Positions 760 to 8,640 of a stretch of 8,640 nt of DNA are shown one piece after another (the stretch's first letter is position 1; each line of letters opens with the position of its first letter). Both the position numbers and the translations under genes were made by a program. Where the stretch lies: NCBI GenBank assembly GCA_021779635.1, contig JAJYAH010000261.1, forward strand, positions 1 to 8,640, given 5' to 3'. The stretch is from Pseudomonadota bacterium. GTDB lineage: Bacteria; Pseudomonadota; Alphaproteobacteria; Rhizobiales; Xanthobacteraceae. The notes beneath the pieces are model-generated. The model did not search any database and was not told where the DNA came from. It worked only from the letters and a program-made list of their open reading frames with translations.

Positions 760-767
760 TCACCCTC
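760..767 (-). promoter_or_regulatory. Ribosome binding site of shdrC1
   Basis: On the minus strand the bases read GAGGGTGA, ending 7 bases before the ATG at 752. The TGA stop of dsrE (766-768) overlaps the 5' end of this site. Termination on dsrE therefore happens on top of the shdrC1 ribosome binding site, which suggests translational coupling. Confidence 0.6.
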
Positions 768-1146
768 AATAAGTCAGGACACGCACGTCGTCGTTTTCCA
801 TCACTTCCTCGATGACCTTGGCGCCACCCACGATGCCTTCACATTCGGGAATGAGATCCTTCTCGGTCATGTCGAACAGATCGAGGTTGGGGGAGCAACA
901 ATAGAACTTCACCCCGGCGCCATGCGCATCCTTGATGAAATCGTAGACCGACTTCGGCGACCCAGGCTTCACCACGAGCTTTTCGGCCACACCCTTCTTC
1001 ATCAACTGGCCCGCCGTCGCCGTGCAGATGACCTCGACCTCATAGTCCATCGCCGCGGCGACGGTCGCCTGGAAGAACGGCGCGCCCAACTCCTCGCCAT
1101 TCCGAGGGTCGGTATTGACCATGATGATAATGAGCTTCTTCGCCAT
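766..1146 (-). CDS. dsrE3C: DsrE3C-type sulfurtransferase (DsrE/F-like family)
   Basis: A 126-residue DsrE/F-like protein, the usual length for DsrE3. It opens with the beta-strand MAKKLIIIMVNTDP and has a Rossmann-like alternation throughout. The conserved active-site segment FYCCSPN carries the pair Cys83-Cys84, the pair expected in DsrE3C proteins encoded next to sHdr genes. DsrE-family proteins carry persulfide sulfur in the cytoplasm and exchange it with TusA. Here the protein would feed sulfur towards the sHdr-LbpA system. It is the first gene after the promoter at 1224-1253 and is followed 13 bp later by shdrC1. The purine-rich GGAGG before the start sits only one base from the ATG, closer than usual; no better start is visible. 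A tusA gene, often found next to dsrE in these loci, is absent on both sides within the window. Confidence 0.87.
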   Translation of the reverse strand: MAKKLIIIMVNTDPRNGEELGAPFFQATVAAAMDYEVEVICTATAGQLMKKGVAEKLVVKPGSPKSVYDFIKDAHGAGVKFYCCSPNLDLFDMTEKDLIPECEGIVGGAKVIEEVMENDDVRVLTY

Positions 1147-1304: not shown

Positions 1305-2006
1305 CTAAGGAGACGGCTGCATCAAATGCGTCGCTTGGACCAGGCCCACCATGACTTCGCCCAGCGCGGCGGCGATCTGGCCCTGCGCGGCGCGCAGTTC
1401 GGCGAGCGTTTCCGCCGTGCGCTCAGGCACTTCGTCGAATTCCATGATCAAGTCCTCGATCATCGCCGATTTGATCCCTGGATGGCCAAGGAACCCAAAG
1501 CAATTATTGCGGATCTGAAAGAGCGTCACCTCGCTGGCGGAATCGACGGCGAGAATGCGGGCGTCGGCGGGAAGCGTCGGGCGATCGCGCATATAGACGG
1601 CGATCGGAAACGAATCCGGCAAATGGCCGCCCAGCGCCTGGGGAACGACGCGTCGTGCGGTGTCTACCGTAAAGCGCAGCGGCGCTTCGTCGGCGCCGCC
1701 GCCGGCTTCGGTTGCGAGTATGCAAGCGCCGATGCCGATGCCAATGATGGGCAAGCCGCGTGCGAGAAAGTCGCGCGTCAACCGCAATTCCGGCCCGAGG
1801 CTGGGAATCAGACTACCGCTAACCACGCCCAACGGGCCGGCGCCGAGAATAATGAGACCATCATATTCCTCGGCCGTCGCGGGGATCGCACCGCCAGGAG
1901 TGAACGGCCGGCAATAGCGGAACCGGATGTTGCGACCTTCGAACTGGTCCTCCATCAAGCCGAGATAGTCCGATTCAAAATGCTGCAGAACGCAGAGCGT
2001 TTTCAT
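1305..2006 (-). CDS. Class I glutamine-amidotransferase-like protein with a degenerate active site (LipX-like)
   Basis: A 233-residue single-domain protein of the GATase-1 fold, starting MKTLCVLQHFESDYLG, which resembles the usual N-terminus of such proteins. The hallmark nucleophile elbow normally reads G-I-C-L-G-x-Q-L-L-A. Here it reads G-I-G-I-G-A-C-I-L-A, so Gly91 stands where the catalytic cysteine should be, and a cysteine appears four residues later (Cys95). The catalytic His is kept (His175 in FGFLGHPG), but the following Glu of the canonical HPE is Gly177. Ammonia transfer from glutamine therefore looks unlikely, and a binding or chaperone-like role is possible. Amidotransferase-like genes recur beside lipS1/lipT/lipS2 in sHdr loci and have, as I recall, been named lipX; the role is unknown to me. 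The ATG at 2006 was preferred over an in-frame upstream start at 2057 because the family's first beta-strand begins there. It is divergent from lipS1. Confidence 0.78.
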   Translation of the reverse strand: MKTLCVLQHFESDYLGLMEDQFEGRNIRFRYCRPFTPGGAIPATAEEYDGLIILGAGPLGVVSGSLIPSLGPELRLTRDFLARGLPIIGIGIGACILATEAGGGADEAPLRFTVDTARRVVPQALGGHLPDSFPIAVYMRDRPTLPADARILAVDSASEVTLFQIRNNCFGFLGHPGIKSAMIEDLIMEFDEVPERTAETLAELRAAQGQIAAALGEVMVGLVQATHLMQPSP

Positions 2007-2038
2007 GTGTTCGCCCAGTCGGAATGAAAAAGACCGCG

Positions 2039-2056
2039 TGCGGCACTGGTGCCGCA
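2039..2056. repeat. Perfect inverted repeat in the divergent lipX-like/lipS1 promoter region
   Basis: TGCGGCAC-TG-GTGCCGCA: two 8-bp arms that are exact reverse complements around a 2-base centre. It is one of few GC-rich stretches in this 97-bp divergent region and lies about 15-32 bp upstream of a possible lipS1 -10 box (TATGAT at 2071). The short centre disfavours an RNA hairpin and favours a dimeric protein-binding site. It differs from the AT-rich operators at 1237 and 7914, so a different regulator may be involved. Confidence 0.6.
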
Positions 2057-2070
2057 TGCCAGCCTAGATA

Positions 2071-2103: not shown

Positions 2104-3135
2104 ATGGCGTGGTTCGACAAATTGCAGGAAATCGAACCCTTTGACGATCTGCCGTTCGATCGCGATCTCGTCGATGTCCTGGAGGCGGCGGCGCGCGAGC
2201 GTACGCTCGGGCCGATGCGTTTCTACACGCCGACCTTCCGCGCCTATGCCAGCGACGAACTCAAGGGCTGCGGCAAGGCGAGCTTCCCTGCCTTCTCCAT
2301 CACTGGCGGCGCCTGTGCCCTGAATTGCGATCACTGCCAGGCGAAAATCCTGGAACCGATGATCCCGGCAACCAGCCCGGTGGAACTCGACCGCAAGGTG
2401 CGCGACCTCGTGCTGCTCAAGGACCTGCGCGGGTTTCTCCTTTCCGGAGGATCGAACCGACGCAACGAGGTGCCGTACGACCGCTACTATCGCACCCTCG
2501 AGAAGCTCAAGCGGGACTTTCCCCATCTGCGAATTGCCGTGCATTCCGCCCTGCTCGATGAGCGGCGCGCCAGGCTCATGCAGGACGCAGGCGTCGACGT
2601 CGCGATGATGGATGTGATCGGGGCGCAGGAGACGATCCGCGACGTCTATCACCTGGACCGAGCCGTGGCGGATTTCGAAGCGACACTGGCGGCATTGTCG
2701 GCGACCTCGATGGACGTCGTGCCACACATCGTCATCGGCCTACATTATGGCCGACTGCTCGGCGAGCAGAACGCGCTCAATATCATTTCGCGTTACAAGG
2801 TGGCAGCGTTGATTCTCGTCGTGGTGACACCGATTTACGCGCCTGCGGACCGCCCCTACGCCACGATATCCACCGATGACGTGGCCAAGGTTTTGGTCGC
2901 CGCCCGGCAACGTATCAACCATGCGCCGGTTCAACTCGGCTGCGTGCGGCCGGCGGGCCGCCACAAACTAATCACCGACGCCTATGCCGTGATGGCGGGC
3001 TTCGACGGTATCGCCTATCCTGCTGAAGGAATCGTGGCGCTTGCCCGCGCCATCGGTCGGCCAGTCGAGCAGGAGCACGCCTGCTGCTCGATCGCGCTCG
3101 ACGGCCTGGGCGGGCGGAAGGCCTGCGCCGCATGA
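2104..3135 (+). CDS. lipS1: LipS1, radical SAM lipoyl synthase component
   Basis: 343 residues. The radical SAM cluster motif C71-x3-C75-x2-C78 (GACALNCDHCQAK) binds the [4Fe-4S] cluster that cleaves S-adenosylmethionine. Further cysteines at 56 (LKGCGK), 280 (GCVRPAG) and a C-terminal Cys327-Cys328 pair could ligate the auxiliary cluster that lipoyl synthases sacrifice as a sulfur donor. This ligand assignment is an inference. LipS1 and LipS2 act together to insert two sulfurs into a protein-bound octanoyl chain, replacing the single enzyme LipA. In sHdr organisms the target is the lipoate-binding protein LbpA. It is the first gene of the lip operon and overlaps lipT by ATGA (stop at 3133-3135, next start at 3132). 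Recognition rests on the motif, the length and the fixed lipS1-lipT-lipS2-slpl order. Confidence 0.87.
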   Translation: MAWFDKLQEIEPFDDLPFDRDLVDVLEAAARERTLGPMRFYTPTFRAYASDELKGCGKASFPAFSITGGACALNCDHCQAKILEPMIPATSPVELDRKVRDLVLLKDLRGFLLSGGSNRRNEVPYDRYYRTLEKLKRDFPHLRIAVHSALLDERRARLMQDAGVDVAMMDVIGAQETIRDVYHLDRAVADFEATLAALSATSMDVVPHIVIGLHYGRLLGEQNALNIISRYKVAALILVVVTPIYAPADRPYATISTDDVAKVLVAARQRINHAPVQLGCVRPAGRHKLITDAYAVMAGFDGIAYPAEGIVALARAIGRPVEQEHACCSIALDGLGGRKACAA

Positions 3136-4214
3136 AAGTGGGGATGGGCAACGAATCTCCAGACGTCGTAGTCGTCGGGCTTGGGCCGGCTGGAAGCCGG
3201 GCCGCCGCGGTTGCCTCTGAGGCCGGTTACGGCGTCATTGCCATCGAACGCCGCGCCGAGGGGGGGTGCCCAGTGCAATGTGCCGAGTTCGTGCCAACCA
3301 TGATCGACCGGGATGTACCTGGCGTACGGACGGTAACCCGGCAGATGGTGGCTCGTATGCTGACCTTCACCGAATCTGGATCGCCCGACGAAACGGCAGA
3401 TTTTCGCGGACGCATGATCGACCGGGCTGCGTTCGACCGGATGCTCGCTGCCGAGGCCGCACGCGCGGGAGCAGACTGCCGATACGGCCGATCTGTGGTT
3501 GCTATCAACGCCAACGGAACCGTCCGCATATCAGACGGCCGAATACTCCAACCGCGTGTTCTGATAGGCTGTGACGGTCCCCATTCGCGGGTCGGAGCCG
3601 CCATTGGCCAGATCAATCGGGCGCTTGTCGATACAAGGCAACTGACGGTACCGCTCGTGCTACCGCACGATGCCACCGATATCTTCCTCAGCGCCGACTA
3701 TCGCGGCGGCTACGGCTGGCTGTTTCCCAAGGGAGCAGTCGCCAATGTCGGTATCGGCGTGGTGATGGAAGAACGGCAGCGGCTAAAGCCGATGCTCACC
3801 GAACTCATTGCCAAACTGTCCTCATTGCGTCGCATCGGTACAAACGCTTTTGGCGCGACCGGCGGCGCCATTCCGGTGGGCGGCCGGCTGCACCCGATCG
3901 GCCGTCTTGGGGCGGTGCCCGTTATGTTGGCCGGCGACGCGGCCGGCTTGACCAATCCGGTTACCGGCGCGGGCATCGCCGCAGCGGTGCAATCGGGAAC
4001 GCTTGCCGGACGCGCCGCGGTGGATTGGCTTGGCGGACGCGCAACCGCCCTCGGCGGTTACGAGGAAGAACTCGGCGACATTTTCGACGCAGCCCTCGGC
4101 CGCGCGCTGCGTCGACGACGGGAAGTGCTCGTACGCTACCAAGGTGGCGGTCGCCCCGATGCGCGGGCGCTCGCCAACGCATGGATCGGTTCGTCCAATT
4201 ATTGGGCGGCATGA
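3132..4214 (+). CDS. lipT: LipT, FAD-dependent oxidoreductase of the geranylgeranyl-reductase-like family
   Basis: 360 residues. The N-terminus holds a dinucleotide-binding fold, VVVVGLGPAGSRAA, with G16-x-G18-x2-G21, and an acidic Glu39 closes the second strand. The C-terminal FAD motif GDAAGLTNPVTGAG contains Asp269, and the family signature GYGWLFPKG lies near residue 194; both are typical of geranylgeranyl-reductase-like flavoproteins. A C46-x3-C50 pair (CPVQCAE) follows the Rossmann region where related reductases have a single cysteine, and it could be redox active. LipT is a regular member of LipS1/LipS2 clusters. A job in supplying electrons to the radical SAM enzymes is a reasonable guess rather than something visible here. 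Its start overlaps lipS1 by four bases, implying translational coupling. A second in-frame ATG at 3144 is possible. Confidence 0.85.
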   Translation: MKVGMGNESPDVVVVGLGPAGSRAAAVASEAGYGVIAIERRAEGGCPVQCAEFVPTMIDRDVPGVRTVTRQMVARMLTFTESGSPDETADFRGRMIDRAAFDRMLAAEAARAGADCRYGRSVVAINANGTVRISDGRILQPRVLIGCDGPHSRVGAAIGQINRALVDTRQLTVPLVLPHDATDIFLSADYRGGYGWLFPKGAVANVGIGVVMEERQRLKPMLTELIAKLSSLRRIGTNAFGATGGAIPVGGRLHPIGRLGAVPVMLAGDAAGLTNPVTGAGIAAAVQSGTLAGRAAVDWLGGRATALGGYEEELGDIFDAALGRALRRRREVLVRYQGGGRPDARALANAWIGSSNYWAA

Positions 4215-4243
4215 AGATACTAAACCAAGAGAAGAAGTCATGA
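4211..4243 (+). other. Ten-codon ORF bridging lipT and lipS2
   Basis: The frame encodes MKILNQEKKS. Its ATG overlaps the lipT stop as ATGA (4211-4214), and its TGA overlaps the lipS2 start as ATGA (4240-4243). The purine-rich stretch that would serve as the lipS2 ribosome binding site (AAGAGAAGAAG) lies inside it. A ribosome could thus pass from lipT to the mini-ORF to lipS2 by two successive re-initiations. It may equally be a coincidence of a 25-bp gap; nothing shows that the peptide is made. Confidence 0.3.
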
Positions 4244-5493
4244 GCTGTCTCGAAATGCCAAGACAACCGGCGCCCGATTTCCTCGAAGATCAAAAGCGCG
4301 CATTCAACGATCCGGAAACGATGCAGCCACGTGCGCCCGGCGCAGTGCCCGCGGACGCGCGCAATGGCGCGCGGGTGAAAACGCAGGACGTGCAGCCCGA
4401 GGGCGTCTACCTGCCGAACTACAATTTTCTTACTCCCAACATGCGTTCGCCGGAATACGTCCAAATGTCGACCGCGGCGGCGATCACGCTCGGCGTCATG
4501 AACGGCTATATGCACCGCACCAGCTGCACGCGTTGCCTGAACTTGTTGCTCACATATCCTGAGGGATGCCGGGCCAACTGCGCCTATTGCGGGCTTGCGC
4601 GTCATCGCGAGGCCGAGCGCAATTATGCCGACCGCAACTTCATCCGCGTCGACTGGCCCGCAGTTCCTTACGACCAGGTGATCGATATTGTCGCCGCGGG
4701 CAGCGATGGCGGACGCTTTCACCGAATGTGCATCAGCATGATCACCCACCCGCGCTCCGACGACGACACCCGCGTCGTGCTGAAGAGATGGGTCGAGCGC
4801 ATCAAGCATGTGCCGGTGTCGATCCTTTCCAATCCAACTACCATGACGCGGCTGGACGTGCAGGAACTGTACGACCTCGGCGCGGAGATCTTTACTGTCG
4901 CGCTGGACGCCTGCAATCCGGAGGTGTTCGACCGCACGCGTGGGCGCGGCGTGCAGTCCCCGCACAGTTGGGACAAATATTGGGAAATCCTCCATGCCGC
5001 CGCGGAGATCTTCGGTCCCGAGCGGTTCGGCGCACATCTCATTGTCGGCATGGGCGAAAGTGACCACGACGTGGTCACCCAAGTGCAGAAAATACGCGAC
5101 CTCGGCGGCCACAGCCACATGTTTGCATTTTTCCCCGAACGCGGTTCGCTCATGGACCATCTCCCGCCGGTGCCGCGCCCGCAATGGCGCCGCGTCCAGC
5201 TCGCCCGTTATCTGATCGACTATCGCAACCATCGACTGGAACACATGCGCTTCGATCACGATGGCCAGCTGGTCGATTTCGGCTTGCCGCAGGACGAACT
5301 CGACGCGGTGATCGACGCAGGCGTCGCGTTCCGCACGTCCGGCTGTCCCGGCAAGGAGGCGGCCGATGTCTCGGCCTGCGATCGGCCCTACGGCGATTCG
5401 CCGGTGAGCGATATCGCCTCCTACCCGTTCAAGCTCAATCGCCGGGACATTCGCAAGGTGCAAAGCCAGCTGCGGCGCGGGCTGCCGAAATAG
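4240..5493 (+). CDS. lipS2: LipS2, radical SAM lipoyl synthase component
   Basis: 417 residues. The radical SAM motif is C110-x3-C114-x2-C117 (GCRANCAYCGLA). Additional cysteines at 96 and 99 (SCTRC) and at 369 and 380 (GCPGKEAADVSACDRP) are candidates for an auxiliary [4Fe-4S] cluster, by analogy with the extra cluster of lipoyl and biotin synthases. The core (MITHPRSDDD, ILSNPTTM, VALDACNPEVFDRTRGRG, HLIVGMGESDHD) follows the beta-barrel of BioB/LipA-like radical SAM proteins. With LipS1 it converts an octanoyl group on a carrier protein to lipoyl. Which carbon each enzyme attacks cannot be read from the sequence. The open frame extends upstream to 4003, but the ATG at 4240 is chosen because it follows the lipT stop by 25 bp and has a purine-rich site in front. 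It is followed 12 bp later by the ligase fusion gene. Confidence 0.88.
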   Translation: MSCLEMPRQPAPDFLEDQKRAFNDPETMQPRAPGAVPADARNGARVKTQDVQPEGVYLPNYNFLTPNMRSPEYVQMSTAAAITLGVMNGYMHRTSCTRCLNLLLTYPEGCRANCAYCGLARHREAERNYADRNFIRVDWPAVPYDQVIDIVAAGSDGGRFHRMCISMITHPRSDDDTRVVLKRWVERIKHVPVSILSNPTTMTRLDVQELYDLGAEIFTVALDACNPEVFDRTRGRGVQSPHSWDKYWEILHAAAEIFGPERFGAHLIVGMGESDHDVVTQVQKIRDLGGHSHMFAFFPERGSLMDHLPPVPRPQWRRVQLARYLIDYRNHRLEHMRFDHDGQLVDFGLPQDELDAVIDAGVAFRTSGCPGKEAADVSACDRPYGDSPVSDIASYPFKLNRRDIRKVQSQLRRGLPK

Positions 5494-5505: not shown

Positions 5506-7380
5506 ATGATCTCCAACGCAGCAAAGCCATTTCGGGTGATCGACACCGGCATTCGCGGCGGGCGTGCCAACATCGCTTTCGATCAGGCGCTCATCGAAGC
5601 ACATAAAGCCCGGCGGATTCCCGACACGATCCGGTTCCTGCGGTTTCGACCCTCGGCCCTCGTCGGCATTCATCAGATTTTGGGCCACGAGGTGCGCCTC
5701 GATTATTGCAGGACCAGGGACATCGAAGTCGGGCGCCGGATCACGGGGGGCGGTGGTCTCTATCTCGACGAGGGCCAGATCGGATGGGAACTCGTGTTCG
5801 ATCGCGCGAGCCTTGGCCACATGGATCTCACGGAGACAACGCGACGGATCTGCGAGAGCGCGGCATTCGGGCTCAACAAGCTCGGCGTCCCGGCGCGCTT
5901 CCGTCCGCGCAATGACATCGAGGTCGACGGCCGCAAGATCAGTGGTACCGGCGGCTTCTTCGACGGCAACACCCTGTTCTATCAGGGCACGCTGTTGATC
6001 GATTTCGACCCAGGGGAGATGATCGCGGCCCTTAAGGTGCCCGTCGAGAAGCTCGCCAAACGCGACCTCGCGTCGACGCGCCAGCGCGTCGTCACCATGC
6101 GCGAGATACTGCAAGACAAGCTTCCCGACCTCGCGACGATCTATCAGGGCCTGCTCGAAGGATTCGCCGAAGGACTAGGCATCCTGCCGCAATGGGGCGA
6201 GGTTTCTGCCTACGAGGAGCAACTCGCCGACCGGCTGTATCGTGACGAGATCGGCTGCGATGACTTCGTCGAGATGGTTGACGCCCCCGAGGTGGACGAC
6301 GCACTGGTTAGTGCATCTCTGACACGGCGCGGCGGCAGCCTGCGCGCCGACATCCGCCTGGAAGGGCCGGAGCGCCGCCGCATTCGCGAAGCGCTGATCA
6401 CCGGCGATTTCTTCGTCACACCACCACGCATCATTTTGGACCTGGAGGCGGCCCTGCGCGGCGCCGAGTTGGCCGATGCCGAGGCGATCGTGGACGATTT
6501 CTTCTCACGCACCCCGGCCGAATTCCTCAACCTCGGTTCCGCCGACATCCGCGATGTCGTCCTCGGAGCCACGCGACAGTTGAGCTTCGTTGCGGCCGGG
6601 CGCCGTCTCCGCGGCCATCGTATCGCGGCGGCGCGTGCGGACAGGCCGCCCCTGGTATTGCTGCATGACGCCTTAGGCTGCGCCCGGCTGTGGCGCGATA
6701 TTCCCGAGCGGCTTGCAGCAGCAACCGGTTGCGCAGTCCTGGTTTACGATCGGTGGGGGTCCGGCGACTCAGCGCCGCTCGAGCCACCTCATTCGCGGCA
6801 CTATCTGCTCGACGAGGCCCTGGAGTCGCTGCCGGAGGTCCTGCGGGCGACGCAGATCCGGCGCCCGATTCTGGTAGGACACTCCGACGGCGCTGCGATC
6901 GCGCTGACCTTCGCTGGCGCCTTCCCCGATCTGGTCAGCGGCGTGGTCGCGATTGCCCCCCATCTCTTCCGCGAGCAGCGGACGATTGCAGGCATTGCCG
7001 ATCAGATCACTGACTTTGAGCACGGAGATCTCAAGGCGCGGCTCGCACGCCACCACGGCAGCAAGACCGATCAATTGTTTCGCCGGCTCGTCGATGCCTG
7101 GACCGGAGAGGAACCGCGCGACTGGGGCATCGAGCAGTACATCCGGCAGGTTCGCTGCCCCGTGCTCGCCATTCAGGGTACCGAGGATGAGTTCTTCACG
7201 CGCGCGCAGCTTGATGCACTTCAGGCCCTCGTGCCCGTCCCAATCGAGACCTGCTTCTTGCCGGGCTGCGGCCATGCCCCGCACCAGCAAGCCACCAAGT
7301 CGGTGGTGGCCGCCGCCACGCACTTCATCGATCGCGTGACGACCGGCGACGGCGTCGAGGTTGCGCCAAGTTTCGGCTGA
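5506..7380 (+). CDS. slplAB: sLpl(AB) lipoate/octanoate-protein ligase fused to an alpha/beta hydrolase
   Basis: 624 residues in one uninterrupted frame. Residues 1 to about 245 are a lipoate-protein ligase A catalytic domain: G76-R-R-I-T-G-G-G-G-L-Y-L-D88 corresponds to the RRxxGGGxVxHD loop, with Leu87 in place of the usual His. N136-D-I-E-V-D-G-R-K144-I-S-G carries the lysine that contacts lipoyl-AMP, and FYQGTLL has Gln160 where E. coli LplA has His. Residues of about 270 to 350 match the small LplB-type accessory domain, as in single-chain sLpl(AB). From about residue 357 to the end is a complete alpha/beta hydrolase: oxyanion segment LLHDALG (386-391), YDRWGSGDS, nucleophile elbow G458-H-S460-D-G, acid Asp561 in QGTEDEF, and His590 in GCGHAPH. 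The ligase should load LbpA with octanoate or lipoate. The hydrolase might free the acyl group from a thioester, ester or amide donor; this is inference. No stop or strong internal ribosome binding site separates the domains. It is the last gene of the lip operon. Confidence 0.87.
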   Translation: MISNAAKPFRVIDTGIRGGRANIAFDQALIEAHKARRIPDTIRFLRFRPSALVGIHQILGHEVRLDYCRTRDIEVGRRITGGGGLYLDEGQIGWELVFDRASLGHMDLTETTRRICESAAFGLNKLGVPARFRPRNDIEVDGRKISGTGGFFDGNTLFYQGTLLIDFDPGEMIAALKVPVEKLAKRDLASTRQRVVTMREILQDKLPDLATIYQGLLEGFAEGLGILPQWGEVSAYEEQLADRLYRDEIGCDDFVEMVDAPEVDDALVSASLTRRGGSLRADIRLEGPERRRIREALITGDFFVTPPRIILDLEAALRGAELADAEAIVDDFFSRTPAEFLNLGSADIRDVVLGATRQLSFVAAGRRLRGHRIAAARADRPPLVLLHDALGCARLWRDIPERLAAATGCAVLVYDRWGSGDSAPLEPPHSRHYLLDEALESLPEVLRATQIRRPILVGHSDGAAIALTFAGAFPDLVSGVVAIAPHLFREQRTIAGIADQITDFEHGDLKARLARHHGSKTDQLFRRLVDAWTGEEPRDWGIEQYIRQVRCPVLAIQGTEDEFFTRAQLDALQALVPVPIETCFLPGCGHAPHQQATKSVVAAATHFIDRVTTGDGVEVAPSFG

Positions 7381-7420: not shown

Positions 7421-7771
7421 TCACCGGCAGAAGGTGCGGTAGAGCGCCGAAATGACCTCGATGACATCCGGCCGCGCGAGCGAGTAATGGACGCTCTTTC
7501 CATTGCGGCGCGCCTCGACAAGATCGTCCGCGCGCAGTCGCGCGAGCTGTTGCGAGACGGCCGCCTGACGTATATTCAAAATCTGCTCAAGCTCATTGAC
7601 GGTTTTATCTCCGTCGATCAGCAAACAAAGAATGAGAAGGCGATTCTCGTGCGAAATTGCCTTGAGGAAATCGCTCGCCTTTCGCGCGTTGTCGAACATG
7701 GCGTCGGTGTCGATCGGCGGCCTTGTAGGGAAGCGCTTCTTCCCCTTGCCTGTCGATAGCGTTGTTGGCAT
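7421..7771 (-). CDS. shdrR: sHdrR-type ArsR-family repressor with persulfide-sensing cysteine pair
   Basis: 116 residues with a winged helix-turn-helix: the recognition segment NIRQAAVSQQLARLRADDLVEARRNGKSVHYSL is typical ArsR. Cys49 (LLILCLL) and Cys115 (the penultimate residue, FCR) are 66 residues apart, the same spacing as the redox cysteines of SqrR, BigR and YgaV, which form a tetrasulfide or disulfide link and release DNA. The metal-binding cysteine cluster of ArsR/SmtB is absent. In sHdr loci such a regulator represses the sulfur-oxidation genes when no sulfur substrate is present. The candidate operator at 7914-7932, with its twin before dsrE, supports control of itself and of dsrE-shdr. 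The frame is open for another 50 residues upstream (to 7921), but the ATG at 7771 gives the normal family length. AAGGAGG (7787-7793) is 15 bases away, further than usual. It is convergent with the fusion gene. Confidence 0.85.
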   Translation of the reverse strand: MPTTLSTGKGKKRFPTRPPIDTDAMFDNARKASDFLKAISHENRLLILCLLIDGDKTVNELEQILNIRQAAVSQQLARLRADDLVEARRNGKSVHYSLARPDVIEVISALYRTFCR

Positions 7772-7801
7772 CGGAGTTACAGATAACCTCCTTGTCACAA
7801 T

Positions 7802-7822
7802 CTCATAAGAATTACTCATAAG
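7802..7822. repeat. Tandem CTCATAAG repeat upstream of shdrR
   Basis: CTCATAAG at 7802-7809 recurs exactly at 7815-7822 with a 5-base spacer (AATTA), a 13-bp period. On the minus strand both copies read CTTATGAG, just upstream of the shdrR ribosome binding site. It might be an accessory regulatory site or a by-product of -10-like sequence. Confidence 0.45.
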
Positions 7823-7843
7823 CATTTTGCATAGCGGTGTCCA
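7815..7843 (-). promoter_or_regulatory. Possible shdrR-proximal promoter
   Basis: Minus strand TGGACA (7838-7843; 5 of 6 to the -35 consensus), a 17-base spacer, and TATGAG (7815-7820; 4 of 6 to the -10 consensus). The start would fall near 7808, leaving a leader of about 37 bases that contains AAGGAGG. The operator at 7914 would then be more than 100 bp upstream, so a second promoter nearer the operator remains possible. Confidence 0.35.
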
Positions 7844-7913
7844 CGGCTTGAACTGAATTTCGAAACCCCTGGACCATAAACCCGCCGGAAGGCTTGACGC
7901 AACCGTGATCGTG

Positions 7914-7932
7914 ATATTCATTTATTTGAATA
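7914..7932. promoter_or_regulatory. Operator-like inverted repeat, second probable sHdrR site
   Basis: The + strand reads ATATTCATTTATTTGAATA: 5-bp perfect arms (TATTC/GAATA) around an 8-base spacer. It is identical at 15 of 19 positions to the site at 1237-1255 in front of dsrE. It lies about 140 bp upstream of the shdrR start on the minus strand and suggests autoregulation. No gene starts to its right on the plus strand. Confidence 0.55.
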
Positions 7933-8094: not shown

Positions 8095-8640
8095 TCAGCA
8101 TATCCGTGGAAGCGGATCGTCTTCCAGTTCCTCAAGGTAGCGCTCGCCGCCGATCTCCGTCTCCAGAATGACACGGCCACGACCGTCGCACATCACACCG
8201 ATGCGGCTTGCAAGCTCGCCGCCTGGCAGCGCGCGCCACAAAGCCAGGATGCTTTCCACCGCCTCGGGAGCCGTGACAGCGACGACGCGCCCCTCGCAAG
8301 CGAGGTAGTAGGCATCGTAACCCAGCATTTGACAGACCGAGCGCACTGAGTCCCGGACAGGGATATGCGCTTCGAAAAGACGCACATCCATCGAAGTGGC
8401 CGCGCCGATCTCGTGGGCCACGGTGGCGAGGCCGCCACGCGTCGGATCACGCATGAAGCGGACGCCATTCATGCCTGCGAGCGGCAAAGCGAATGCCGCA
8501 ACCGGCGCACAATCCGATTGCACGGAGCCGGATAGCTCGAATTCCTCCCGGGCCAGAAGGACGGCGATGCCGTGATCGCCGATCGGACCACTGACCACAA
8601 GTACGTCGCCATCGCGGATTTTCTCCATTCCGAGCACTAC
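8095..8640 (-). CDS. hypE: HypE, [NiFe]-hydrogenase maturation protein (5' part outside window)
   Basis: The visible 181 residues are the C-terminal half of an AIR-synthase/HypE-fold protein; the frame is open at base 8640. Recognisable HypE segments are DGDVLVVSGPIGDHGIAV, the MRDPTRGGLATVAHEI loop of the PurM-like C-terminal domain, and above all the terminal P-R-I-C. The last cysteine accepts a carbamoyl group from HypF, which HypE dehydrates with ATP to a thiocyanate, the source of the cyanide ligands on the hydrogenase iron. An intact C-terminal cysteine argues that the gene is functional. It is transcribed towards shdrR but separated from it by 323 bp, so it belongs to a neighbouring hyp/hydrogenase cluster rather than to the sulfur locus. 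Confidence 0.93.
   Translation of the reverse strand, partial: VVLGMEKIRDGDVLVVSGPIGDHGIAVLLAREEFELSGSVQSDCAPVAAFALPLAGMNGVRFMRDPTRGGLATVAHEIGAATSMDVRLFEAHIPVRDSVRSVCQMLGYDAYYLACEGRVVAVTAPEAVESILALWRALPGGELASRIGVMCDGRGRVILETEIGGERYLEELEDDPLPRIC

What the first reader, a model, noticed from the sequence alone, without database searches (positions are those of the whole stretch)
5506..7380. Lipoate ligase sLpl(AB) fused in frame to an alpha/beta hydrolase with intact catalytic triad
Residues 1 to about 350 are a lipoate-protein ligase plus LplB-like domain; from about 357 a full hydrolase follows with Ser460 (GHSDG), Asp561 and His590. I do not know this architecture from described lipoate enzymes. 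An acyl-releasing hydrolase joined to an acyl-activating ligase suggests one protein that frees octanoate or lipoate from a donor (acyl-ACP, acyl-CoA, ester or lipoyl-lysine) and then attaches it to LbpA, analogous in logic to BioH supplying an acyl precursor in biotin synthesis. This would answer where the ligase substrate comes from in a LipS1/LipS2 pathway lacking LipB. The alternative is that the hydrolase is unrelated and was joined by chance loss of a stop codon.
Basis: partly seen in the sequence, partly recalled or inferred. Interest (0 to 1): 0.82.

Follow-up and report, generated by a model that had tools for sequence, protein, structure and literature searches.

The report
Lipoate ligase fused to a hydrolase
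Some bacteria with sulfur-oxidation genes carry a lipoate-attaching enzyme permanently joined to an intact hydrolase related to those in benzoate-breakdown gene clusters; the pair may make its own fatty-acid substrate, which can be tested directly.

Summary
Window 5506-7380 (+) is one 624-aa frame: an sLpl(AB)-type lipoate ligase (residues ~7-354) joined to a complete alpha/beta hydrolase (~357-612) with Ser460-Asp561-His590. It is no assembly accident: 118 of the 120 listed homologues keep both halves, the triad in 118 of 118, junction length fixed in 114 of 118, and sampled trees show one origin. AlphaFold2 predicts a defined two-domain arrangement (pTM 0.86; 0.82 for a homologue). Corrections: 16 of 16 genomes tested carry LipB; the hydrolase is not BioH-like, its closest relatives being stand-alone hydrolases that track the aerobic benzoyl-CoA (box) pathway, and none was found beside 12 unfused slpl loci. 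In two of three orders sampled most slpl genomes lack the fusion: it is an add-on. Likeliest role: hydrolysing an acyl thioester to free acid beside a ligase whose characterised relative accepts only free acids. The substrate is unproven; editing is a main rival. I saw no description of the fusion in the passages read or in the search listings.

The parts
5506..7380 (+). sLpl(AB)-hydrolase fusion protein, 624 aa, stop codon included
   Evidence: single ATG frame; PF21948 + Abhydrolase; 118 of the 120 listed homologues have both domains complete
5527..6273 (+). lipoate ligase catalytic part (residues ~8-256)
5734..5754 (+). RRITGGG motif, residues 77-83
   Evidence: R77, R78, I79, T80, G81, G82, G83 each 120 of 120
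5935..5937 (+). Lys144, expected catalytic lysine of LplA-type ligases (assignment recalled)
   Evidence: 120 of 120
6274..6540 (+). LplB-like accessory part (residues ~257-345)
   Evidence: two-domain LplA structures align over residues 7-354; NF053749 LplB 33.9 bits, below cut-off 65
6538..6579 (+). junction (residues ~345-358): helix running straight into the first hydrolase strand, no flexible linker predicted
   Evidence: residues 341-383 are 43 long in 114 of 118; A355 and Q358 in 118 of 118; pLDDT block means above 90 across the junction
6580..7341 (+). alpha/beta hydrolase domain (residues ~359-612)
6883..6888 (+). nucleophile Ser460 (GHSDG) and invariant Asp461 next to it
   Evidence: Ser460 118 of 118 fused and 84 of 85 stand-alone; Asp461 118 of 118 and 85 of 85
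7186..7188 (+). Asp561, triad acid
   Evidence: 118 of 118 fused, 85 of 85 stand-alone
7273..7275 (+). His590, triad histidine
   Evidence: 118 of 118 fused, 85 of 85 stand-alone
2104..3135 (+). lipS1 (radical SAM lipoyl synthase part 1)
   Evidence: NF053742 LipS1 201 bits, below its cut-off of 230 but the best family
3132..4214 (+). lipT (FAD oxidoreductase of the geranylgeranyl-reductase type)
   Evidence: TIGR02032 180.3 bits, cut-off 158.8; position between lipS1 and lipS2 as given for H. denitrificans (PMC10332631)
4240..5493 (+). lipS2 (radical SAM lipoyl synthase part 2)
   Evidence: NF053743 LipS2 190.7 bits, below its cut-off of 270 but the best family
766..1146 (-). DsrE-like protein of the sHdr locus
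   Evidence: PF13686 and PF02635
3..752 (-). HdrC-like iron-sulfur protein (sHdrC), cut by the window edge
   Evidence: NF041890 HdrC 90.3 bits, below cut-off 270; Fer4_8
7421..7921 (-). ArsR/BigR-type repressor beside the fusion
   Evidence: NF033788 80.6 bits, cut-off 55; NF040642 BigR 85 bits, below cut-off 155

Best explanation
The gene encodes a conserved bifunctional enzyme: an sLpl(AB) lipoate/octanoate:protein ligase whose C-terminus is a serine hydrolase with an intact active site. Shown by sequence: both active sites intact, fixed junction, a single fusion event in the trees, co-divergence of the halves afterwards, location in the lipS1-lipT-lipS2/sHdr-LbpA setting. Inferred: the hydrolase came from the family of stand-alone hydrolases that goes with aerobic benzoyl-CoA (box) metabolism beside CoA-thioester enzymes, changed its pocket when it was captured, and now hydrolyses an acyl thioester (octanoyl-ACP or octanoyl-CoA being likeliest) to the free acid. 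The neighbouring ligase then activates the acid with ATP and puts it on LbpA, after which LipS2 and LipS1 insert sulfur. It is an add-on that raises or channels free acid, not a required step of the pathway.
For: Architecture and constraint. One origin: in an 83-row ligase tree the 49 fused rows sit in one clade (99*) that also holds three broken or shortened rows; in a hydrolase tree 30 of the 118 fused and 43 of the 85 stand-alone proteins are split by one branch (100*). Ligase and hydrolase distances over 118 fused proteins correlate at r 0.85, permutation maximum 0.05 in 500. Purifying selection: dN/dS of the window against 8 fused loci is 0.08-0.26 (ligase) and 0.13-0.36 (hydrolase), dS 0.7-2.5 and so rough. 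Confident two-domain models: pTM 0.86 and 0.82. Setting: lipS2 directly upstream in 6 of 9 fused loci (L001, L002, L003, L004, L008, L012); a GcvH-like LbpA gene about 0.4, 0.7 and 1.8 kb away in L005, L084 and L085, and about 11 and 6.5 kb away in G001 and G003. Donor logic: the Thioalkalivibrio sLpl(AB) uses only free octanoate/lipoate (PMC10332631; PMC6067878). Thioester link of the hydrolase family: neighbours BoxB, BoxC, benzoate-CoA ligase, another acyl-CoA synthetase or a CoA transferase; [quoted passage not shown] Changed pocket: residues switched between fused and stand-alone rows at 388-389, 489, 500, 528, 533, 563, 564 and, conservatively, 572.
Against: No substrate is known and no activity was tested. 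Close unfused relatives (ligase 66-71% identical, lipS2 next door) have no such hydrolase nearby, and the fusion is a minority in two of three orders: 1 of 17 and 4 of 51 ligase-positive genomes, against 3 of 3 in the third. P0243 looks like a fusion that lost its hydrolase. Splitting a thioester and then spending ATP to re-activate the acid is wasteful. Asp461 aligns with Asp123 of valacyclovir hydrolase, which neutralises a substrate amino group; octanoyl thioesters have none near the scissile bond. The hydrolase half diverges faster than the ligase half (mean distance 0.367 against 0.288).
Confidence: 0.4

Rival explanations
1. Editing or clearing: the hydrolase removes wrong acyl groups from the ligase's own reaction (misactivated acyl-AMP, or aromatic or dicarboxylic acyl groups on LbpA, or their CoA esters) in cells whose benzoyl-CoA metabolism makes look-alike acids. 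It would work like the editing domain of an aminoacyl-tRNA synthetase (analogy recalled).
For: The hydrolase derives from the benzoyl-CoA (box) type family. BoxB is found in 12 of 12 genomes with the fusion against 17 of 70 ligase-positive genomes without it (tallied). Fixed junction and defined domain arrangement.
Against: The BoxB association is carried by one order (4 of 4 against 2 of 47, p 6e-5) and is not significant among alphaproteobacteria (7 of 7 against 15 of 21, p 0.14); the fused proteins are one clade, so genomes are not independent. 17 unfused ligases also live with BoxB. A stand-alone relative of the hydrolase is present in the same fused genomes anyway (12 of 12).
Confidence: 0.2
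2. The hydrolase does a job unrelated to lipoylation (for example a lactone or ester of the box pathway or a detoxification substrate) and is merely carried, perhaps helped by co-regulation with sulfur oxidation.
For: Family tie to box metabolism; add-on distribution; an apparent loss (P0243).
Against: One origin followed by retention in alpha- and betaproteobacteria, a fixed junction and r 0.85 co-divergence are more than carriage needs; pocket positions differ from the stand-alone rows; a stand-alone copy is retained as well in 12 of 12 fused genomes.
Confidence: 0.2
3. Recycling: the hydrolase is a lipoamidase or acyl-lysine hydrolase that strips lipoate or octanoate from LbpA or from lipoyl peptides for re-use by the ligase.
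For: Physical link to a ligase type that accepts free lipoate (PMC10332631); LbpA encoded within 2 kb in three loci.
Against: Nearest families act on esters, lactones or thioesters, not secondary amides (activities of the named families partly recalled). Cutting LbpA while ligating it would be a futile cycle unless regulated.
Confidence: 0.12
4. The hydrolase part acts as an acyltransferase or on S-acyl-dihydrolipoyl groups, as the alpha/beta-hydrolase part of acetoin dehydrogenase E2 (AcoC) is thought to do (function recalled).
For: Best NCBIfam match of the hydrolase part is NF011457, the acetoin dehydrogenase E2 subunit.
Against: 50.4 bits against a cut-off of 307, and 3-oxoadipate enol-lactonase is close behind at 48.2; no lipoyl domain found in this protein.
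Confidence: 0.05
5. Artefact: chance loss of a stop codon or an assembly error joined two unrelated genes.
For: None found beyond the existence of close unfused relatives.
Against: 118 of the 120 listed homologues carry the same complete fusion, 114 of 118 with the same junction length; the trees agree.
Confidence: 0.01

Closest known systems
sLpl(AB) lipoate:protein ligase of sulfur oxidisers (Hyphomicrobium, Thioalkalivibrio; PMC6067878, PMC10332631)
   Same: Ligase fold, motif residues, and the lipS1-lipT-lipS2-slpl(AB) order given for H. denitrificans in PMC10332631
   Different: Here a full hydrolase follows the LplB part. 'Hydrolase' occurs 0 times in the main text of PMC10332631 and once, in a reference title, in PMC6067878; supplements not seen
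[quoted passage not shown]
   Same: 37-48% identity over the domain, same triad and G-x-S-D-G motif
   Different: Not fused; encoded with box or other genes; differs at positions 388-389, 489, 500, 528, 533, 563-564. That the genes here are the gene named in the paper is inferred from neighbours, not from a sequence link
Valacyclovir hydrolase/BPHL (2ocg)
   Different: 18% identity; a single-domain alpha-amino-acid ester hydrolase and thiolactonase (PMC4198189, passages)
BioH pimeloyl-ACP methyl esterase
   Same: Alpha/beta hydrolase feeding a cofactor pathway, by analogy only
   Different: 28.7 bits against a cut-off of 206.95
Acetoin dehydrogenase E2 (AcoC type, NF011457)
   Same: Alpha/beta hydrolase part in a lipoyl setting; best NCBIfam hit of the hydrolase part
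   Different: 50.4 bits against 307; no lipoyl domain found here
Ligase-lipoyl synthase fusion NF053790 (LplA_LipA_fuse)
   Same: A lipoate ligase fused to another enzyme
   Different: Partner is LipA, not a hydrolase; 93.3 bits against 800

Membership tests
sLpl(AB) lipoate:protein ligase | LplA/B catalytic domain | tested here: met
   PF21948 140.9 bits, cut-off 27
sLpl(AB) lipoate:protein ligase | conserved RRxTGGG motif and lysine | tested here: met
   120 of 120
sLpl(AB) lipoate:protein ligase | C-terminal LplB part in the same chain | tested here: met
sLpl(AB) lipoate:protein ligase | encoded with lipS1, lipT, lipS2 near sHdr genes | tested here: met
   Window; relatives. LipS1, LipS2 and HdrC models score below NCBI cut-offs
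sLpl(AB) lipoate:protein ligase | place in clade 3, subgroup 3 of the published tree | not tested
   No reference sequences of that tree were used; Hyphomicrobium-type ligases (L013, L014) fall with unfused rows on a long branch
sLpl(AB) lipoate:protein ligase | uses free octanoate/lipoate and modifies LbpA | not testable with these tools
   needs assay
alpha/beta serine hydrolase | fold and Ser-Asp-His triad | tested here: met
box-type hydrolase family | sequence relationship | tested here: met
   Split from 43 sampled stand-alone rows by one branch, 100*; the fused rows are a separate group, not mixed among them
box-type hydrolase family | encoded beside box genes | tested here: not met
   Fused copies lie with lipS/sHdr/LbpA genes; several stand-alone copies lie by BoxB, BoxC or benzoate-CoA ligase
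box-type hydrolase family | lactonase activity | not testable with these tools
   needs assay; for the stand-alone genes I saw only an assignment cited
BioH pimeloyl-ACP methyl esterase | TIGR01738 cut-off | tested here: not met
   28.7 bits, cut-off 206.95
acetoin dehydrogenase E2 (NF011457) | model cut-off and lipoyl domain | tested here: not met
   50.4 bits, cut-off 307; no lipoyl domain
valacyclovir hydrolase/BPHL | fold and Asp next to the nucleophile | tested here: inconclusive
LipB-less lipoylation pathway | genome lacks LipB | tested here: not met
   LipB over cut-off in 16 of 16 related genomes; the window's own genome is not held

The most novel reading that the evidence does not exclude
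A self-feeding lipoate ligase: one protein hydrolyses octanoyl-ACP or octanoyl-CoA at its C-terminal site and passes the acid to its N-terminal site for ATP-driven attachment to LbpA, turning a scavenging ligase into a de novo octanoyl-transfer machine that by-passes LipB, with the hydrolase borrowed from benzoyl-CoA metabolism.
Probability: 0.33. Interest if true: 0.82.

Novelty: new variant of a known kind. Interest (0 to 1): 0.62.

Why it matters
The sLpl(AB)-LipS1/S2 pathway starts from free octanoate, and the passages I read do not say how a bacterium provides it, while LipB uses ACP-bound octanoate directly. A natural fusion of the ligase with a hydrolase that has an intact triad gives a one-protein, one-mutant test of whether hydrolysis of an acyl donor (or editing) is part of LbpA lipoylation. 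It also suggests an enzyme family moving from aromatic degradation into cofactor attachment, and where the listed homologues bear a database name it is either a hydrolase or a lipoate ligase, not both.

Tried and rejected
Chance stop loss or assembly error: rejected. 'Pathway lacking LipB': rejected for the 16 genomes tested; LipA is over cut-off in 15 of 16. BioH kinship: rejected by score. Stand-alone hydrolase beside unfused slpl: looked for in 12 unfused loci (L009-L011, L013-L021), none at E <= 1e-3 within the held flanks; several flanks are short, and L022 is cut inside the ligase so it cannot tell. Mutual exclusion of fused and stand-alone hydrolase: not found; stand-alone copies occur in 12 of 12 fused genomes and in 5 of 8 plus 8 of 15 unfused ones (cut-offs 1e-15 and 1e-30). 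Whether the two active sites face each other: not tested, since the structure tool gave no coordinates or PAE. A named cultured isolate with the fusion: not found; the 9 genome loci with the fusion are all titled MAG, and 0 of 69 plasmid records with a match cover 80% of the query. Identity of the 'PE hydrolase' 9l75: the one paper search for that code gave an unrelated 1881 text.

Literature limits. Seen: PMC10332631 abstract, Results parts 1-2 of 3, Discussion and found passages; PMC6067878, PMC6449761, PMC4498308 and PMC4198189 found passages only.

Caveats on counts. E <= 1e-60 and at most three scored candidates per genome; 8 of its 59 matches are hydrolase-only and were dropped before the 4 of 51 count; two of 17 (G265, G340) are fragments and were counted as unfused. 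Genome completeness is not given, so an absence of BoxB or of the stand-alone hydrolase may be a gap. BoxB in G006 is two contig-end fragments, each below the cut-off, counted as present. The trees are quick searches on subsets. Of P0121-P0155 I read 16 of 35 starts before calling them fusion fragments; P0156-P0240 were taken as stand-alone from length and from six starts read. Off-frame queries: the sHdrC query and the LbpA query were translated in a wrong frame; LbpA claims rest, only agreeing in place, and sHdrC.

Full report
What is there. The frame at 5506-7380 (+) encodes 624 residues without interruption. Pfam finds the lipoyl ligase catalytic domain at 21-220 and an alpha/beta hydrolase at 381-602. 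Upstream lie lipS1 (2104-3135), lipT (3132-4214) and lipS2 (4240-5493); the first and last are best matched by the NCBI models LipS1 and LipS2, though both score under those models' cut-offs. On the other strand are a DsrE-like gene and an HdrC-like gene cut by the window edge. Downstream, on the minus strand, is an ArsR/BigR-type regulator. This is the lipS1-lipT-lipS2-slpl(AB) order that PMC10332631 gives for Hyphomicrobium denitrificans.

Is it real. A search of 5.8 billion proteins gave 4523 matches, of which the best 120 were listed and used. 118 of these 120 have both halves complete. The ligase residues R77, R78, G81-G83 and K144 are in 120 of 120; Ser460 in 120, Asp561 and His590 in 119 of 120 each, the exceptions being gaps. 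The stretch between columns 341 and 383 has the same length in 114 of 118. A quick ligase tree of 83 rows puts the 49 fused rows in one clade (99*) together with three rows that lack a recognised hydrolase: P0241 and P0242 break off at or inside the hydrolase, and P0243 ends about 20 residues past the junction and looks like a loss. Unfused Xanthobacteraceae/Bradyrhizobium-type ligases lie outside that clade when the tree is rooted on distant unfused ligases, so I read the fusion as gained. A quick hydrolase tree separates 30 of the 118 fused from 43 of the 85 stand-alone rows by one branch (100*), and over 118 proteins the distances of the two halves correlate at r 0.85, against at most 0.05 in 500 permutations. 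dN/dS of the window against eight fused loci is 0.08-0.26 for the ligase and 0.13-0.36 for the hydrolase, lowest against L001; dS of 0.7-2.5 makes these rough.

Where the hydrolase came from. The search with the hydrolase alone returned first fragments of the fusion and then, from P0156 down, stand-alone proteins at 40-51% identity. Stand-alone copies occur in 13 of the first 16 genomes. Neighbours confirmed by NCBIfam are BoxB and BoxC in three genomes (G001, G009, G011) and a benzoate-CoA ligase in G001, G002 and, as a partial gene, G010. An acyl-CoA synthetase adjoins it in G005, a CoA-transferase-family gene in G006, an ABC transporter ATP-binding gene in G013 and ccmA in G003 and G008; for G004 and G007 the adjoining gene gave no informative match, and G012 was not scanned. 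In the first 16 genomes the stand-alone copy is in 12 of 12 with BoxB and in 1 of 4 without, the exception G010 having the benzoate-CoA ligase. In 19 further genomes it is in 12 of 13 with BoxB and 0 of 6 without. [quoted passage not shown] So the family goes with CoA-thioester metabolism of aromatics. Against the stand-alone rows the fused clade has switched residues in the loop after a hydrolase core strand (388-389), in what I take as the cap region (489, 500, 528, 533), next to the triad acid (563, 564) and, conservatively, at 572.

Distribution. Six of nine fused loci have lipS2 directly upstream; in the others the contig ends first (L006), lipS2 lies elsewhere on the contig (L005), or none is found (L007). 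The fusion is a minority form in two of the three orders sampled: 1 of 17 ligase-positive genomes among 397, 4 of 51 among 399, but 3 of 3 among 22. All 16 genomes first examined have LipB and GcvH-type proteins, and 15 have LipA over cut-off. Twelve unfused slpl loci have no family member within the held flanks.

An association worth noting. BoxB is found in 12 of 12 genomes with the fusion and in 17 of 70 ligase-positive genomes without it. Within the order of G004 it is 4 of 4 against 2 of 47, but among alphaproteobacteria 7 of 7 against 15 of 21 is not significant (p 0.14). Separately, within the order of G001, ligase-positive genomes carry BoxB in 12 of 17 cases against 51 of 380. Kinship is not corrected for.

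Mechanism. [quoted passage not shown] A hydrolase on the same chain that frees an acid from a thioester is therefore a coherent design, and it is my first choice at 0.4. Editing of wrong acyl groups (0.2), an unrelated carried activity (0.2) and recycling of lipoate (0.12) remain open. The unfused relatives show that the pathway works without the hydrolase, so whatever it does is an improvement, not the missing step.

Novelty. The main text of PMC10332631 has no occurrence of 'hydrolase' or 'esterase', PMC6067878 has one, in a reference title, and seven paper searches on lipoate ligases showed nothing about the fusion in their listings. Database names, where given, call the protein either a hydrolase or a lipoate ligase. 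Both halves are known kinds; the pairing is a new variant.

Noticed in passing
window 1305-2057 (-): A glutamine-amidotransferase-like gene (NF005458 60.8 bits, cut-off 250; no Pfam hit) sits beside lipS1, lipS2 or slpl in fused and unfused loci alike (L001, L005, L008, L009, L011, L012, L022, L087-L091). A possible unrecognised member of the sHdr/LipS locus.
   Followed up: partly
order of G001: Genomes with an slpl-type ligase carry the benzoyl-CoA epoxidase BoxB far more often (12 of 17) than those without (51 of 380), whether fused or not; kinship not corrected.
   Followed up: partly
L010 2538-8927 (+): An unfused slpl is followed after 25 bases by a 2129-residue frame that reads like a multidomain polyketide synthase (by eye, not searched).
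   Followed up: no
L013, L014 10001-11029 (+): Two Hyphomicrobium-type genomes have an slpl-like ligase on a long branch with no LipS1, LipT or LipS2 match within the held flanks.
   Followed up: partly
P0243: A ligase nested in the fused clade that ends about 20 residues past the junction: an apparent secondary loss of the hydrolase, or a frame break.
   Followed up: partly
window 8095-8637 (-): C-terminal part of a hydrogenase maturation protein HypE (TIGR02124, profile 154-332 of 332, 169.8 bits, cut-off 251.6) running to the window edge.
   Followed up: no
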